Origin: a virus
Direction: 5' to 3' (one strand)
DNA: 26,230 nt
IMG/VR virus record: IMGVR_UViG_3300033145_001232
Location: 1 to 26,230 of that record
Position numbers and translations under genes: made by a program. The notes under the pieces were generated by a model that made no database searches, was not told the origin of the DNA, and was given only the letters and a program-made list of their open reading frames with translations. Of this stretch, positions 6,040-21,678 are shown in pieces (positions within the stretch are counted from its first letter, which is position 1; each line of letters opens with the position of its first letter).

Positions 6040-6237
6040 ATGCCCCAGTATAGACGTTGTCAGAAGTGTAGAGAACTATTGTATTCTGCTGATAACTCGC
6101 TAAAAGTGTGGATCTGTCCCAGGTGTAAGACTGTTGTCAGTGCTGAAAATGTGTGTAACCAAAACTGGGAGTCTCAAGAACAAGATGAGGAGGTAAGAAG
6201 AAAAAGCTGTGCTAATTCAGAGCGAAGAACAATATAA
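6040..6237 (+). CDS. Small zinc-ribbon protein
   Basis: This is a 65-residue ORF with an AAAGGAG upstream of ATG. It carries CQKC near the N-terminus and CPRC about 20 residues later, a classic zinc ribbon, followed by a glutamate-rich tail. Its 3' end overlaps the start of the DNA polymerase gene by 29 nt, and its own tail contains the polymerase's GAGGAGGT site. It may be a small DNA-binding or adaptor protein; there is no specific family match. Confidence 0.7.
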   Translation: MPQYRRCQKCRELLYSADNSLKVWICPRCKTVVSAENVCNQNWESQEQDEEVRRKSCANSERRTI

Positions 6238-7972
6238 AAACATGTTGAGTAAGATAGATAAAGGTCCACCTGTAATGGTGTATGACTTAGAAACTACAGG
6301 TCTGAACCCTTATCTGGGAGACAGACTAATTGGTATTGCTATTTTGATACCTGACTTGAGTGGAGAAACGGATGGAGAGTCCTTCTATGTACCATTCAGG
6401 CACAAAAGAGGAAAGAATTTACCTATTAACGAATTGTATCACCTAGCGCCATTCCTAGCAGATCCGAAACGGGTACTCATTGGCTTTAATATAAAATTCG
6501 ACATCCACTTTACCGAAATAGAGGGAATTTCCGTATTCAACCAGATTGTAGACGTCATGTTAGGCGCACACCTGTGTAATGAGAACGAGATGAGCTTTGC
6601 TTTGAAAAAGCTGGGTTCAAAGTACATTGACAAAGACGCGGCAAAAGAAGAGATAGAACTAATAGAGCTACTGAAAAAACACAAGCTTAAAAAAGAAGAG
6701 ATGGACAACCTGTTACCAGAGAAGGTAGCTCCCTATGCTGAAAAAGACGTTGTGCTTACGTGGCAACTGGCTAAATTTTATCAGGATCAGTTAATCCAAC
6801 AAGGACTGGTAGACATGTGGTGGGAGGTGAATAAGTACTGCAAAGCTATAACTGATATGGAACGCAGAGGCGTTTTGATTGATCCGATCAAATGCTCTGA
6901 ACATTTGAAATCTGCTGATACCAAACGGCAGGAAGTCCATCAAAAAATGGTTGAACTAGTTGGGCATGATTTCAATCCAAATAGTGTTCCACAGTTACGG
7001 AAGATATTGAATCAAAAAGAGACTGACAGAAAAGCGCTAAAGAAAACCAAACATCCGGTAGCGCCCTTATTGTTAGAATACAGGGGATGGGATAGAGCTA
7101 TAAATACTTATTATCAAAGTTTCCTGGATTCAATGGATGAAAATTATAGAATCCATCCCAACCTAAACATTCATGGGACCGTATCGGGACGGCTGTCCTG
7201 CACAAAACCAAATTTGCAGGCGTTGCCAAAAGGAAAGGACCAGTACAAGGTGAGAGAGCTGGTTGTTGCCCCGCCAGGATATGTGCTCATGTCATGGGAT
7301 TGGAGCCAAGTCGAGCTTAGATTACTTGCACATTATACAAAGGACCCACTCTTGTTGAATGCCTTTAGGGAAAACAAGGATATTCACCAAGCTACATCAG
7401 AGCGGCTAAAGATAGACAGGAGTGAAGCCAAAAGAATTAATTTTAGCATAGTTTACGGTATTGGGGTAAATGGTCTTGCCGAGAATCTAGGAATTACCAA
7501 AAAGGAAGCTGAAAAATATCTAAACCAATATCATAGTATGATTCCTGGAATAAAGAAACTTTACAACATTGCAGAGAGGATCGCTATCAGGGATCAAAAG
7601 TTGCCGATGTGGACGGGGCGATTACGACATTATAGGAAAGAAGATGCAACTCATAAAGCTATGTCCAACCTAATTCAAGGTGGCGTAGCTGAAATGATGA
7701 GAATAGCTATTACCCGATTGGACGAAGTGCTTAAAGGGACAAGAGCACACATGATTTTACAAGTTCATGACGAAATATTATTTGAAATACCTGAGGAAGA
7801 AGTGAATTGTTGGATACCAGTAATCAAGGAAATCATGGAAGACTTTCCTTTTGAAGTACCGATTAAGGTAGAAAGTAAAATTGGTTACTCTTGGGGACAC
7901 ATGGAGCCAGTCACATGGTCCAATGAAAGCAAAGAGCCAGTTGTTCCTGATTTGGGGGAAAGGTGTAAATGA
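6209..7972 (+). CDS. Family A DNA polymerase with 3'-5' exonuclease
   Basis: This 587-residue phage replicative polymerase lacks a 5' nuclease domain. Exo motifs: YDLETTG (D26, E28), FNIKFD (D98), YAEKD (Y176, D180); all catalytic residues are present. Polymerase motifs: A, DWSQVELR (D364); B, R404…K408…F412…YG417; C, HDE (520-522). F412 is at the position that discriminates against dideoxynucleotides. GTG 6209 is the only start after an upstream in-frame stop; the GAGGAGGT site is 14 nt away, which is long, so ATG 6241 remains a weaker alternative. Polymerases of this type (DpoZ) occur in phages with PurZ, and a PurZ homologue lies three genes downstream. Confidence 0.95.
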   Translation: MLIQSEEQYKNMLSKIDKGPPVMVYDLETTGLNPYLGDRLIGIAILIPDLSGETDGESFYVPFRHKRGKNLPINELYHLAPFLADPKRVLIGFNIKFDIHFTEIEGISVFNQIVDVMLGAHLCNENEMSFALKKLGSKYIDKDAAKEEIELIELLKKHKLKKEEMDNLLPEKVAPYAEKDVVLTWQLAKFYQDQLIQQGLVDMWWEVNKYCKAITDMERRGVLIDPIKCSEHLKSADTKRQEVHQKMVELVGHDFNPNSVPQLRKILNQKETDRKALKKTKHPVAPLLLEYRGWDRAINTYYQSFLDSMDENYRIHPNLNIHGTVSGRLSCTKPNLQALPKGKDQYKVRELVVAPPGYVLMSWDWSQVELRLLAHYTKDPLLLNAFRENKDIHQATSERLKIDRSEAKRINFSIVYGIGVNGLAENLGITKKEAEKYLNQYHSMIPGIKKLYNIAERIAIRDQKLPMWTGRLRHYRKEDATHKAMSNLIQGGVAEMMRIAITRLDEVLKGTRAHMILQVHDEILFEIPEEEVNCWIPVIKEIMEDFPFEVPIKVESKIGYSWGHMEPVTWSNESKEPVVPDLGERCK

Positions 7973-9019: not shown

Positions 9020-10060
9020 ATGATTGACATCGTTGTTGGTGGACAATACGGCGATGAAGGGAAAGGACAAGTATGTGCTTGGTTAGTTGAATATGAAGGG
9101 GTGTATGGAGACCCCTACAAGTTTGCTGTGCGAGTTGGCAGCAGTAGTGCCGAACATCGCTTTGTCACTCCCAAAGGCCAAAAATACACTGCTCGAGTAC
9201 TACCGGTAGCAGCCTGGATGGACCCTGACATCGATGTTGTGTTAGGACCGGGACATATAATCAAATTGGAAAGTTTCTTCCGAGAAGTAAAAGAGCTAAC
9301 AACCTTACACGGTGACCGGTCCGGGCACATTTTTATCGATCCACTCGCTGGGGTGATTGAACCAAAGCATGTTAAAGCAGGAAAAAAGACTGCCTGGCGG
9401 GGATCAACTTACCAGGGGGCCGGTCACGCTGTAGCCCACAAAGTGCTACGGGATGGGTCATTTAAGACAGCAAAAGATTACCCAGAATTAGAGCCATACG
9501 TCTATTGTCCAGGAGTTTGGCGCCTATTAAGGCAATGGCTTAAGGAGGGCCGTACTGGGATGTTGGAGGGCTCTCAAGGAATTTTATTATCTCTTAATCA
9601 CGGTTGTTACCCATTCTGCACATCTAAAGATACCACTCCAGCCGCCTTACTGGCAGAATCTGGAATACCAACCCGCTATGTCCGGCATATTTACGCTATT
9701 TATCGGGCAGTGCCGATGCGAGTACCTGGCAATAGCGGTCCTACTGGCAACATAGAATTAACCTGGGAACAACTGGAAGAAGCCATTGGGCGCACCTTAC
9801 CAGAAAGAGTTAAACGACAGACAGATTCCGGCAACTTAGAAAGAGTGTTCCTGTGGTCCTGGAGCGACTTTGAAAAGTCTGTATTCCTGTGCGGTCCAGA
9901 CCGTTTGGTGCTGACCTTCGCCGACTGGTGGCCCACAAGCCTAATGAACGGAACGACAATAAAAGACCTCATCGAAGGTATGGAAGAGCGGTCCAACTGT
10001 CCAGTAATCATGGTTAGAAGTGGCCCTGCCTGGAACGACTATTATTTGCGCCCAGTCTAG
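9020..10060 (+). CDS. purZ: Short adenylosuccinate synthetase homologue (PurZ-like)
   Basis: This 346-residue member of the PurA family has the short length of archaeal PurA and phage PurZ (bacterial PurA is about 430). The P-loop is GGQYGDEGKG (7-16), with D12 at the catalytic Asp. The second catalytic His is kept (H46), but the usual NAGHT reads SAEHR (43-47). EGSQG and NHGCYPFCTS match the nucleotide-binding and switch segments. The base-recognition strand reads LTFADWW rather than TKLD. PurA joins aspartate to IMP; PurZ does so to dGMP on the way to 2-aminoadenine. Described PurZ enzymes mostly replace the Asp by Ser or Gly, so substrate preference is open. AAGGAGG lies 9 nt upstream. Confidence 0.8.
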   Translation: MIDIVVGGQYGDEGKGQVCAWLVEYEGVYGDPYKFAVRVGSSSAEHRFVTPKGQKYTARVLPVAAWMDPDIDVVLGPGHIIKLESFFREVKELTTLHGDRSGHIFIDPLAGVIEPKHVKAGKKTAWRGSTYQGAGHAVAHKVLRDGSFKTAKDYPELEPYVYCPGVWRLLRQWLKEGRTGMLEGSQGILLSLNHGCYPFCTSKDTTPAALLAESGIPTRYVRHIYAIYRAVPMRVPGNSGPTGNIELTWEQLEEAIGRTLPERVKRQTDSGNLERVFLWSWSDFEKSVFLCGPDRLVLTFADWWPTSLMNGTTIKDLIEGMEERSNCPVIMVRSGPAWNDYYLRPV

Positions 10061-14829: not shown

Positions 14830-15774
14830 ATGAGTTTATTAGATAAGGAATTTGATGAAAGGATACAAGAAATAGTTAATTTCAATAGTGAGCCCTATGT
14901 GATTGAGCCTTTAAGAAGGCTAGCCAGGGATGTGAAAAATGCAGTAAAAACTATAACTCCTTCTACTATTAGGTTTTTCGTGGATAAATACTACCAATTT
15001 CAAAAAAACAGAATAGCTTTTAAAAATCAAATTAGAAGCGAAGAAGGAGAACCCAATGAAGTTGTCAATTGGTTGTACCAAAATTTAGTGTATTTGGAAG
15101 CTGATTTAAAAAGTGTCTTAGATGCTTATACTGATGCCGATCCTGTTGGAAGATGGGCAAAAGGGATAGTTGGAATTGGGCCGGTTTTGTCAGCGGGGTT
15201 GCTGGCACATATAGATATTACGAAAGCAGAGACGGTTGGATCAATATGGCGCTATGCGGGGCTTGATCCTACTCTTAAATGGGAGAAGGGGGAAAAGCGC
15301 CCCTGGAACGCTAGGTTGAAAAGTTTATGTTGGAAAATCGGAGAAAGCTTTGTAAAAGTGAGAAATAACCCGAAGGATGTTTATGGCAAAATTTACTGGA
15401 AAAGGAAAATTTATGAGTGGGAGAAGAATATCAGAGGGGATTATGCGGGCCAGGTTAAAAAAGTTGGGAAGAATACTGAAGCGTATCTTTGGTATTCTGG
15501 TTCTCTGAAGCCGAAAGAAGAATTTACAGGTGCTGATTTTGCTACAGCGAAAACTGGGGAACACAAGAGATTGGTTGACAAGGTCGGTGAAGGAAGAGGC
15601 GTGCTGATGTTGCCTCCGGGACACATTCATGAACGGGCAAAGCGAAAGGCTGTTAAGCTGTTCCTGGCACATTGGCATGAAGTGGCTTACGAGAATCACT
15701 ACGGCAGGAAGCCTCCGAAGCCTTATCCGATAGCAATATTGGGGCATGTTCATGAGATAAAAAGGCCAGAATGA
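14830..15774 (+). CDS. Phage protein with IS110-transposase C-terminal-like helix-hairpin-helix domain
   Basis: The protein has 314 residues. ATG 14830 is chosen because AAAGGAGG lies about 9 nt upstream; an earlier GTG has no site. The N-terminal 100 residues are helical and charged. GIVGIGPVLSAGLLAHID then RYAGLDP recall the helix-hairpin-helix (Transposase_20) domain of IS116/IS110/IS902 transposases. The RuvC-like DEDD catalytic domain of those enzymes is absent, and no IS110 ends are seen, so it is not an intact transposase. The rest is lysine- and tryptophan-rich, and histidine-rich near the end (PPGHIHERAK, LGHVHEIK). DNA binding is inferred. The repeat array begins about 40 bases after its stop. 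Confidence 0.7.
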   Translation: MSLLDKEFDERIQEIVNFNSEPYVIEPLRRLARDVKNAVKTITPSTIRFFVDKYYQFQKNRIAFKNQIRSEEGEPNEVVNWLYQNLVYLEADLKSVLDAYTDADPVGRWAKGIVGIGPVLSAGLLAHIDITKAETVGSIWRYAGLDPTLKWEKGEKRPWNARLKSLCWKIGESFVKVRNNPKDVYGKIYWKRKIYEWEKNIRGDYAGQVKKVGKNTEAYLWYSGSLKPKEEFTGADFATAKTGEHKRLVDKVGEGRGVLMLPPGHIHERAKRKAVKLFLAHWHEVAYENHYGRKPPKPYPIAILGHVHEIKRPE

Positions 15775-15810: not shown

Positions 15811-16680
15811 CTAAGCGAGCTAATCTATTGCGAGAGTACCATAAGCGGTGAGCGAGCCAAAGGCCAAGAAAGCACTATTGAAGAAGAGCGAGCCACCTGA
15901 CAGGAGAGCACTGTTAAAGCAGAACGAGCTATTTACGGGAAAGAATTAGGGGAAGAAGCGAGCCATTCGGCCTGAGAGTACTATAAACCGCAGAGCGAGC
16001 CACGGTGAAAGAGAGAACTATTGAGAAGGAGCGAGCCATACGGCGGGAGAGCACTATTAAAGCAGAGCGAGCCCAAGGGTTATGAGAGCGCTATTAAAAC
16101 AGAGCGAATAGAATAGAATAAGCTACATGGTAGGAGAGCACTATTAAAGCAGAGCGAGCCATTTTTGGTGAGAGAACTAACAGTGGAGAGCGAGCCATTT
16201 ATTAGGAGGGCACTACAGCGTGAGAGCGAGCCAAGGGGAGTGAGAGCACTATGCAGAGAAAGCGAGCCAGCTACTGAGAGAGAACTATGAAAAAGGAGCA
16301 AGCTAAAGCCTGCGAGAGCACCACTAATAAAAGAGCGAGCCATGTCGGCAGGGAGGGAACTATGAATAACGAGCGAGCTGTTTGTTACAAGAGTACTATT
16401 GAGGCAGAGCGAGCCATAAAACCGGAAAGCACCACAGTTGGGAAGCGAGCCAAGGCTTCAGAGAGTACTATTAGAGCAGAGCGAGCTAAAGACATAGAGG
16501 GAACTAGATGAAGAGAGCGAGCCAGGGTTTTAGAGAGAACTAATCGGAAAAGAGCGAGCCAAGACTTCAGAAAAAACTAGGTAAGGGGGAGCAAGCTATT
16601 CCCCTGGGAAAGGACTATATGGGGAGAGCGAGCCATAAAAGTAAAGAGAGTCAATGTGGTAGAGCGAGTTGATGGCCTGG
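15811..16680 (+). repeat. Array of ~24 degenerate 36/37-bp tandem repeats with 8-nt hypervariable spacers
   Basis: Units read GCGAGCCA - N8 - GAGAGCACTAT - about 9 nt, often TTAAAGCAGA. The GCGAGC motif recurs at 15815, 15852, 15888, 15958, 15995, 16031, 16067, 16154, 16190, 16226, 16262, 16335, 16373, 16409, 16445, 16481, 16517, 16554 and 16628, with one-base variants at 15924, 16104, 16298, 16591 and 16664. Spacing is mostly 36, often 37, once 50. The N8 segment differs in every unit yet keeps its length (9 nt in two units). One phase would read ERAxxxESTIKA, 12 residues per unit, but stops and shifts break it. This fills the ~1-kb gene-free stretch 15775-16802. Confidence 0.9.
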
Positions 16681-16761
16681 GTGGTAGGAAAGAGGTGCAA
16701 GATAAGCAGGGATGATGCAAAATATTTTATCTTTCAGCTGATTAGGGTGGCTGTATAAAAA

Positions 16762-16776
16762 GCCGCTTTAAGCGGC
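16762..16776 (+). other. Small GC-rich hairpin
   Basis: GCCGCTT-T-AAGCGGC is a perfect 15-bp dyad in an otherwise A/T-rich leader, about 30 nt before the start of the next gene. The following AAAATTTTCT is weakly T-rich, so it might act as a partial terminator at the end of the array. Confidence 0.4.
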
Positions 16777-16808
16777 CAACAAAATTTTCTAAAAGGAGTG
16801 TATTGCAT

Positions 16809-18678: not shown

Positions 18679-19518
18679 ATGAAACTTTACAAAGTTTTAA
18701 AGAGAGTAAGCGGGAGACTAAGGAGCCCGTTCCAAGATTATGAATATAAACCAGGCAAAGAATATACATGTAAAAACTTTAACGCAGATGTCGAAGTAGG
18801 ATGTTCTTATGGTTATTATGCTACTGAATTAGAAGGGCTGATCTACAGCTTTTGTGACTCTCCAGAATATGAAATTTGGGAGGTTGAAGTAGGAGGCAGA
18901 AGAGTGGAAATTGATCAATTTAAACGGCGGTACGAACGAATCAGGTTGTTACGCCGAGTACCTCTTGAGGAAGTTAAAAAGTTAGCGTTAGCTGAAGAAG
19001 AAAAAGTCGGATATAAGCTAGCAGAGGTACTGTTTCCAATCCATCCGTTAAGAGTCAAAGCTAGGTTGGTTACAGAAGCGGAAATCGGTTTATTAAAAGA
19101 TTGGGGTTTAGTTTGGGATTTAGCTTGGGCTTCAATCAGGGATTCAGCTTGGGATTCAGTCAGGGTATATATTTGGGATTCAGTTAGGAGTTCAGTCGGG
19201 AATTCGGTCTGGGATTCAGTCAGGGATTCAATCAGAAGTATCAGAAGTTTAGTTAGAGCTTCAGCCTGGGATTCAGTCAGGGTATATATTTGGGATTCAG
19301 TCTGGGCTTCAGTTGGGGCATATATCTTCAGTTTATTTCCAGGCATTGCAGACCGGAAGTGTGTCGAACATTCCAAGGATATAACTCCCTATCAGCCGTG
19401 TATTGACTTATGGCGCAGGGGATTTGTGCCGAGCTTTGACGGCGAAAAATGGAGACTCCACGCTGGAGAAGAAGCAGAGATTGTATGGGAAGGAGCGTTG
19501 AAGGAAGGATCACAATAA
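18679..19518 (+). CDS. DUF7666-like protein with WDSV-type four-residue repeats
   Basis: This 279-residue protein has a clear AAGGAGG before ATG. The N-terminal 65 residues (MKLYKVLKRVSG, then GCSYGYYATELEGLIYSF and YEIWEVEV) resemble the DUF7666 domain found in phage proteins. Residues about 144-217 form a repeat of four residues per step (WDSV, RDSA, WDSV, RVYI, WDSV, RSSV, GNSV), encoded by a 12-bp DNA repeat; a 35-nt copy at 19150-19184 recurs exactly at 19267-19301. A W/aromatic C-terminal tail follows. The repeat could form a regular solenoid or stack. Function unknown; rapid length change by slippage is likely. Confidence 0.75.
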   Translation: MKLYKVLKRVSGRLRSPFQDYEYKPGKEYTCKNFNADVEVGCSYGYYATELEGLIYSFCDSPEYEIWEVEVGGRRVEIDQFKRRYERIRLLRRVPLEEVKKLALAEEEKVGYKLAEVLFPIHPLRVKARLVTEAEIGLLKDWGLVWDLAWASIRDSAWDSVRVYIWDSVRSSVGNSVWDSVRDSIRSIRSLVRASAWDSVRVYIWDSVWASVGAYIFSLFPGIADRKCVEHSKDITPYQPCIDLWRRGFVPSFDGEKWRLHAGEEAEIVWEGALKEGSQ

Positions 19519-20277: not shown

Positions 20278-21678
20278 ATGGAAATAGTCAAAATCCCGAT
20301 TAAAAAGATAAAACCTGCAAGTTACAACCCGCGCAGGGACTTAAAACCAGGTGACCCGGAATATGAAAAATTGGAAATGTCGATCCGTGAATTTAGCTTG
20401 GTGGAACCGCTGGTCTGGAACCGGCGCACTGGCAACCTCGTCGGAGGACATCAGCGGCTGAAGGTGCTGCGGCAGATGGGGCTGCAGGAAGTAGAGGTTT
20501 CGGTTGTTGACTTGTCACCGGAGAAAGAAAAGGCTTTGAATATAGCGCTCAACAAAATACAGGGTGATTGGGACTACGTTAAGCTAAAAGATTTGCTGCA
20601 GGAGCTGGATACAGGGACGTTTGATATAGAGATTACTGGGTTCAGTATGGAAGAAATAGAGCAGTTAATGACAGAACTGCATGGTGCGGTTGGTGAAGAA
20701 AAAGAAAGGAAACTGCCGCAGGTTGAGGCCAGGGCAGCGTTAGGTGATATCTGGCAGTTGGGAGAACATAAGGTAGTTTGTGGGGATTGTACAGACGCTA
20801 ATTTGCTTCAAAGACTTCTAAGCGGCAATAAAGCGAATACGATTGTAACTTCGCCACCGTACGCTCAACAGCGCAAAAGTGAGTATGGAGGAATTTCGGC
20901 AGAGGAATATCCAGAATGGTTTGGTGCTGTGGCAAATGCAATGTGGAGTGTCCTTGACGACACAGGGTCGTTTTTCCTCAACATTAAGGAGCATGTCGAG
21001 GATGGGCAGAGAAGTTTGTATGTCATGAAACTGGTTATCGCAATGGTGGAGCAGTATAGTTGGCGATTTATAGACGAACTTATTTGGGTAAAGCCAGGAT
21101 TGCCTGGCGGCTGGAATAATCGGCTTAAAAATGATTTTGAGCCAGTTTTTTGGTTTGCAAAAGGCGATAATGTGGGTATAGTAGAACGACAGATTGAGGA
21201 AGGCGAAGAAAACGATGAAACAGAGAATATCGTTGATGAGTTTGGACGAGTGTTTCATTTCTCAAAACAGCGAAAGATAAGGTTTTATCCCAAAAGTGTA
21301 GGGAGAAAATCAAGCACAGTACTGGCGTATACTTCCTTAAATGTGAGCAAAGGAGCAACAGGGAATATTACAGTGTCAGGGCCAAGAAAGAAAGGCATAG
21401 CCAGACCCGGCAACGTTATTAAGATTCAAGGTAATACAGAGAAGTGGGAGCATCCGGCAATGTATCCGGTTGGCCTTGCAGAGTTTTTAATTAAATTGAC
21501 AACATTAAGGGGAGATAGAGTATTAGATCCGTTCCTTGGTGCAGGTTCTACCCTTATCGCTGCTGAGAAAACTAAGCGGGCATGCTATGGTGTGGAGCTG
21601 CAGCCGAAGTATGTTGATATTGTTCTTGCTCGTTGGGAACAGTTCACAGGCCGAAAGGCGGTGAAATTAAATGGCTGA
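20278..21678 (+). CDS. ParB-like domain fused to a DNA methyltransferase
   Basis: The protein has 466 residues. The first ~95 residues form a ParB/sulfiredoxin-type domain (KIKPASYNPRR, GGHQRLKVLRQMG). The second part is an S-adenosylmethionine-dependent methyltransferase with TSPPY (S192-Y195, motif IV) before DPFLGAGST (D417 onward, motif I), the beta-class order. SPPY favours cytosine-N4 methylation, although adenine-N6 is possible. Such fusions are common next to phage terminase genes and may protect phage DNA from host restriction or mark it for packaging. GGGGTGAT precedes ATG. Its 3' end overlaps terS by 8 nt. Confidence 0.92.
   Translation: MEIVKIPIKKIKPASYNPRRDLKPGDPEYEKLEMSIREFSLVEPLVWNRRTGNLVGGHQRLKVLRQMGLQEVEVSVVDLSPEKEKALNIALNKIQGDWDYVKLKDLLQELDTGTFDIEITGFSMEEIEQLMTELHGAVGEEKERKLPQVEARAALGDIWQLGEHKVVCGDCTDANLLQRLLSGNKANTIVTSPPYAQQRKSEYGGISAEEYPEWFGAVANAMWSVLDDTGSFFLNIKEHVEDGQRSLYVMKLVIAMVEQYSWRFIDELIWVKPGLPGGWNNRLKNDFEPVFWFAKGDNVGIVERQIEEGEENDETENIVDEFGRVFHFSKQRKIRFYPKSVGRKSSTVLAYTSLNVSKGATGNITVSGPRKKGIARPGNVIKIQGNTEKWEHPAMYPVGLAEFLIKLTTLRGDRVLDPFLGAGSTLIAAEKTKRACYGVELQPKYVDIVLARWEQFTGRKAVKLNG

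What the first reader, a model, noticed from the sequence alone, without database searches (positions are those of the whole stretch)
15811..16680. 36-bp two-box repeat array with fixed-length hypervariable 8-mers
About 24 units share GCGAGCCA and GAGAGCACTAT boxes, while the 8 nt between them differ in every unit but keep their length. The array is purine-rich on the + strand and free of a full reading frame. Box A and box B resemble each other, hinting at an older 18-bp unit. It could be a non-coding RNA, a protein-binding array (iterons or partition site), or a decayed gene for ERAxxxESTIKA repeats; synonymous-type changes (GCC/GCT, AGC/AGT) favour some coding past, whereas stops and 37-bp units argue against present coding.
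Basis: seen in the sequence. Interest (0 to 1): 0.75.

Follow-up and report, generated by a model that had tools for sequence, protein, structure and literature searches.

The report
Phage guide-RNA array (TIGR-TasA system)
The repeats are a string of small guide RNAs, each carrying two short address sequences, next to the gene for the protein that uses them to bind DNA; this is a phage TIGR-Tas system, a kind first described in 2025, whose natural targets are still unknown.

Summary
The array is real. It is not a gene or a pseudogene: across about 1,400 distinct spacers from related arrays, stop codons in the ERA/EST frame occur at chance. It is a TIGR array. The gene ending 38 bp upstream (14830-15774, 314 aa) matches NCBIfam NF052498 'TIGR-Tas' (198 bits, cut-off 100), and its AlphaFold model is closest to solved TasR and TasH. 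It has no nuclease domain, so it is TasA type. The same repeats occur on about 100 phage contigs; in 60 of 60 tested loci the array is on the tas strand, 59 within 300 bp. The kind is known (Faure et al., Science 2025); this is a new member with a divergent loop repeat (CTA for CCA). Beyond the paper: related phages share whole 36-nt units in mosaic order; A and B spacers re-pair within arrays about 30 times above background; 1,489 spacer pairs show no excess of tandem targets in 2.9 Mb of array-bearing sequence. Targets and TasA's role stay open.

The parts
14830..15774 (+). tasA gene: TIGR-associated Nop-domain protein, 314 aa, no nuclease domain (ORF can be read from GTG 14779; ATG 14830 has a GGAGG site upstream)
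   Evidence: NCBIfam NF052498 197.8 bits, cut-off 100; PDB TasR 9mty E 5e-15 and TasH 21kl E 6e-12; AlphaFold2 pLDDT 86.6, best folds 9mty and 9vzx
15813..16671 (+). [quoted passage not shown] last edge repeat degenerates (GAGCGAGTTG)
   Evidence: same repeat family in 119 viral stretches
15850..15885 (+). example of a unit: edge GAGCGAGCCA, A AAGGCCAA, loop GAAAGCACTA, B TTGAAGAA
16029..16064 (+). unit whose spacer B TTAAAGCA recurs in the units at 15886 and 16116 with different spacers A
16102..16125 (+). lesion in the array: degenerate edge and short GAATA repeats that break the 36-bp register
16761..16777 (.). hairpin after the array; its T-run is good only on the - strand, so its role as array terminator is uncertain

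Best explanation
A phage-borne TIGR-TasA system. [quoted passage not shown] A TasA dimer holds one tigRNA by the two repeat-borne C/D-type motifs (inferred from the TasR structure; supported here by covarying pairs inside the repeats). Spacer A pairs with one strand and spacer B with the other at adjacent sites, about 16 bp in all, opening and bending the DNA (inferred). With no nuclease domain, TasA should bind without cutting, most likely to block transcription or replication of competing elements or to regulate; that last step is a guess. The confidence below is for the identity as a TIGR-TasA system, not for the final biological role.
For: Shown here: anatomy 10+8+10+8 nt. The neighbouring gene is a Tas protein by curated family, by sequence to TasR/TasH and by fold. 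Gene and array are linked on one strand in 60 of 60 loci found through the array, and an independent protein search in bacterial genomes found arrays of the same type, on the tas strand, next to 13 of 23 Tas genes. Edge repeats show covarying pairs at positions 2-7 and 3-6, loop repeats only at 2-7, matching the TasR edge (two pairs) and loop (one pair) in PMC12045711. Non-coding. No HNH or RuvC hit in the window protein.
Against: No RNA data for this phage. Loop box C is CTA in 18 of 22 units where others have CCA, and the repeats are more divergent than in most arrays (1.8 to 2.6 changes per 20 nt, median 1.5), so part of the array may be decaying. No natural target was found.
Confidence: 0.93

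Rival explanations
1. Decayed gene for a 12-aa repeat protein (ERAxxxESTxxx).
For: One frame reads ERA/EST in every unit; a 74-aa ORF runs through 16287-16511.
Against: Stops in that frame are at chance over about 5,600 spacer codons; 111 of 123 arrays of 6 or more units are closed in all three frames and only 4 are open in the ERA frame; the 8-mers show no codon-like conservation.
Confidence: 0.01
2. Iteron or partition (parS-like) protein-binding array used in replication or segregation.
For: Regular repeats; the contig also has a ParB-domain methyltransferase (20278-21678).
Against: Strict linkage and strand match with tas; fixed-length variable spacers; the ParB-like gene starts 3.6 kb after the array (4.5 kb after tas) and is fused to a methylase, not an adjacent tasParB.
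Confidence: 0.02
3. A TIGR array that is real but no longer active (relic): tasA intact, array decaying.
For: Repeats more divergent than in most arrays, box C change to CTA in the loop, broken register near 16110.
Against: tasA is intact with a good ribosome site; spacing is kept in almost all units; the CTA change is shared by 18 of 22 loops, which looks like a fixed variant rather than random decay.
Confidence: 0.15
4. Bridge-RNA (IS110-type) transposon with repeats.
For: The protein shares the IS110 C-terminal (Nop-like) region: weak Transposase_20 and IS621 matches.
Against: No N-terminal DEDD domain and no room for one; much better match to TIGR-Tas models; many short guide-like units rather than one bridge RNA.
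Confidence: 0.01

Closest known systems
TIGR-TasA, dual-repeat type (Faure et al. 2025, PMC12045711; e.g. Flavonifractor plautii FpTIGR)
   Same: Solo Nop-domain protein without nuclease; array next to the gene on the same strand; [quoted passage not shown] 36-nt period; phage-borne.
   Different: 8-nt spacers with 10-nt repeats (FpTIGR has 18 spacer nt per unit); 23 units where 5 to 15 are usual; loop box C is CTA while the edge keeps CCA; no clear + strand terminator.
TIGR-TasH of Salicola phage CGphi29 and TIGR-TasR (PDB 9mty)
   Same: Nop fold, 36-nt units; SpTIGR also has 16 nt of spacer per unit.
   Different: They carry HNH or RuvC nuclease domains; the window protein has none; only 27% identity over 43% of the query to the CGphi29 protein.
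IS110 / IS621 bridge-RNA transposases
   Same: Shared Nop-like RNA-binding region.
   Different: No DEDD recombinase domain; array of short guides instead of one bridge RNA.
CRISPR arrays
   Same: Works like one: repeats alternating with variable guides.
   Different: Two short repeats and two 8-nt spacers per unit; unrelated effector; no cas gene seen.

Membership tests
TIGR-Tas | Nop-domain Tas protein encoded next to the array | tested here: met
   NF052498 197.8 bits, cut-off 100; fold match to TasR and TasH; gene ends 38 bp before the array
TIGR-Tas | Two alternating 8-12-nt repeats with about 9-nt spacers (16 to 18 variable nt per unit) | tested here: met
   10+8+10+8 nt in the window and in 1,801 units of window and related loci
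TIGR-Tas | Array on the coding strand, up- or downstream of tas | tested here: met
   60 of 60 same strand, 59 within 300 bp; window: downstream
[quoted passage not shown]
   Family: CCA at the end of both, with covarying pair 2-7. Window: edge CCA 15/22, loop CTA 18/22, so the two differ
TIGR-Tas | Truncated edge repeat at the ends and a rho-independent terminator | tested here: inconclusive
   Last edge GAGCGAGTTG fits a 3' truncation; hairpin 16761-16777 has its T-run on the - strand
TIGR-Tas | Processing into 36-nt tigRNAs | not testable with these tools
   needs small-RNA sequencing
TIGR-Tas | Tandem DNA targeting by spacers A and B on opposite strands | not testable with these tools
   binding not testable; no natural targets found
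TIGR-TasA subtype | No RuvC or HNH nuclease domain | tested here: met
   no such Pfam match; all-helical model; alignment to TasR begins after the TasR N-terminal part (query 63 to chain 115)
TIGR-TasA with tasParB | parB-like gene in the tas operon | tested here: not met
   ParB-domain protein starts 4.5 kb after tas and is fused to a DNA methylase
IS110 transposase | N-terminal DEDD domain | tested here: not met
   absent
CRISPR-Cas | cas genes and single repeats of 25-36 nt | tested here: not met
   repeats are 10 nt; the array's companion gene is a Tas protein; no cas effector or adaptation gene among the window proteins scanned against Pfam, PHROGs or NCBIfam
Repeat-protein gene | Open frame or fewer stops than chance | tested here: not met

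The most novel reading that the evidence does not exclude
TIGR arrays make new guides by themselves: units are duplicated, moved and lost as 36-nt blocks, and spacers A and B are re-paired by recombination at the short repeats, so that guide sets diversify inside the phage without capturing foreign DNA; TasA would then carry a randomised set of DNA binders under selection rather than a memory of past targets.
Probability: 0.3. Interest if true: 0.75.

Novelty: new member of a known kind. Interest (0 to 1): 0.45.

Why it matters
TIGR-Tas is a young discovery, and the paper that described it lists as open points the natural targets, what the nuclease-free TasA does, and how arrays arise and change. 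The repeat family found here occurs on about 100 phage contigs with about 1,770 different units, which is a ready data set for those questions. The first results (block-wise unit turnover, re-pairing of A and B, no excess of targets in the array-bearing phages) narrow the options.

Tried and rejected
Rfam scan of the region: nothing. DNA search against isolated phages: nothing. The only isolated phage with a related protein is Salicola phage CGphi29, 27% over 43%; none on plasmids. Target search: units as A + 0-2 nt + reverse complement of B, the geometry I derived from the paper's cleavage rule. No excess over re-paired controls in 1.07 Mb (7 against 4.7, gaps -1 to 3), in the array's own locus with up to 2 mismatches, or in 2.86 Mb including most of the sequence of about 30 array-bearing contigs (gaps 0-2, 8 exact against 8.3). 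One search seemed to show a strong excess, but its database included the loci L156 onward that had been fetched because they match two window units; rerun without them, the excess vanished. A small peak at gap 5 came from low-complexity and duplicated sequence. Other geometries (A then B on one strand, or inverted order): no excess; the same tests used the mixed database and also showed none. Scans of all viral contigs for two window units gave 26 and at least 120 hits with no contig in common among those listed, as expected of 16-nt chance matches. Close relatives of the window's own phage: none found; the only single-protein hit is 48% identical, so spacer turnover could not be followed for this very array.

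Full report
What is there. Between 15813 and 16671 lie 23 units of 36 bp. Each unit has a 10-nt repeat GAGCGAGCCA, 8 variable nt, a second 10-nt repeat GAGAGCACTA, and 8 more variable nt. Both stretches vary. Most have 8 nt, a few 7, 9 or 10. The array is on the + strand of a 26,230-base virus record and starts 38 bp after the stop of a 314-aa gene.

It is not coding. In the frame that reads ERAxxxESTxxx, stop codons in the variable stretches occur at the chance rate (A: 121 seen, 126 expected; B: 117 seen, 136 expected, both within the range of the shuffles), and of 123 arrays with 6 or more units 111 are closed in all three frames and 4 are open in that one.

The family. A parser found 244 arrays and 1,779 units in 118 of them; the same sequences read backwards gave one array. 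Consensus: edge GAGCGAGCCA, loop GAGAGCACCA, spacers 8 nt in 92% (A) and 96% (B) of units. Some stretches share a contig and some contigs are near copies, so the number of independent contigs is about 100.

The gene. Its neighbour in the window and in the related loci is one protein family. All 54 members aligned match NCBIfam NF052498, TIGR-Tas (window 197.8 bits, cut-off 100). By sequence the closest solved proteins are TasR 9mty and TasH 21kl; the AlphaFold2 model (pLDDT 86.6) has 9mty and the TasH structures as its best fold matches, then IS110 transposases. No nuclease domain is seen, so by the naming of Faure et al. (PMC12045711) it is TasA. The NCBIfam name says endonuclease, but that is the name of the whole family. 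Linkage: 60 of 60 loci have the array on the tas strand, 59 within 300 bp. A search by protein alone in bacterial genomes found 23 Tas loci, 13 with arrays of this type, all on the tas strand; two are in named isolates (Halomonas sp. NO4, Acidobacteriaceae KBS 96).

Match to the published anatomy. [quoted passage not shown] 36-nt processed RNAs; a box C/D pair in both repeats and one further pair in the edge only. Here, positions 2 and 7 (counted from 0) of both repeats covary (edge A-U in 24 units where about 5 are expected, p 1e-11; loop U-A in 28 where about 2 are expected), and positions 3 and 6 pair and covary in the edge (p 3e-4) but are mostly A and A in the loop. These counts treat units as independent, which related arrays are not. 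The window departs in one respect: its loop ends in CTA in 18 of 22 units while its edge keeps CCA in 15 of 22; its segments are the only ones of about 214 with that majority. A C-to-T change in the middle base of box C may be tolerated or may mark decay.

How it probably works. Inferred from the family: transcription through the array, cutting inside each edge repeat, one 36-nt guide per TasA dimer, spacer A and spacer B pairing with opposite strands of about 16 bp of DNA. TasA should bind and bend but not cut. What it binds is unknown here as in the paper.

Targets. I searched for A + 0-2 nt + reverse complement of B. With 1,489 units against 2.86 Mb, including most of the sequence of about 30 array-bearing contigs, there were 8 exact matches at gaps 0-2 against 8.3 in controls with re-paired spacers. 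Own-locus matches with up to two mismatches were also at control level. So arrays of this family show no excess of tandem matches to their own phage or to the sampled array-bearing phages. Other phages, plasmids and host chromosomes were not tested with power.

Array change. Related phages share whole units (both spacers), mostly in the same order but with different units between them and no preferred end. Example L034 and L102: 8 matching unit pairs among 25 and 20 units, with one unit duplicated in L102. Within single arrays or loci, the same spacer A or B occurs with a different partner 27 times where 0.9 is expected from unrelated loci, and whole units recur 13 times where none is expected. 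The window's TTAAAGCA with three different spacers A is one such case. This suggests duplication and recombination at the short repeats. It does not exclude capture of outside sequence.

Judgement. It is a new member of the TIGR-TasA group with a divergent loop repeat and a long array. The turnover and re-pairing results go beyond what I found in the main text of the paper; its supplement could not be read here.

Noticed in passing
L055 102-2225 (- strand): A tasA gene of this family carries an in-frame insertion of about 400 aa with Hint, LAGLIDADG and intein-splicing matches: an intein inside a Tas protein.
   Followed up: partly
window 9020-10060 and 6209-7972: Adenylosuccinate-synthetase-like protein, 32% to the PurZ-type protein of Vibrio phage phiVC8 but below the PurZ cut-off (162 of 300 bits) and with GDEGKG kept, near a PolA-type polymerase with a sub-threshold DpoZ match: may or may not be a 2-aminoadenine phage.
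   Followed up: partly
window 20278-21678: ParB-like N-terminal domain fused to an N6/N4 DNA methylase, starting 3.6 kb after the array; not the tasParB arrangement.
   Followed up: partly
window 18679-19518: ORF with 12/24/36-bp tandem repeats encoding WDSVRDS-type motifs; here the repeat is coding, unlike the TIGR array.
   Followed up: no
contigs of L016/L026, L014/L029, L036, L039/L106, L046/L067: Some phage contigs carry TIGR units of this family on both strands, apparently at several places in one genome.
   Followed up: no
Tas alignment A1: Two of the 54 Tas relatives give an HNH_3 match (best E 4e-4); I could not pin down which. They might be nuclease-bearing forms using the same repeats.
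   Followed up: partly
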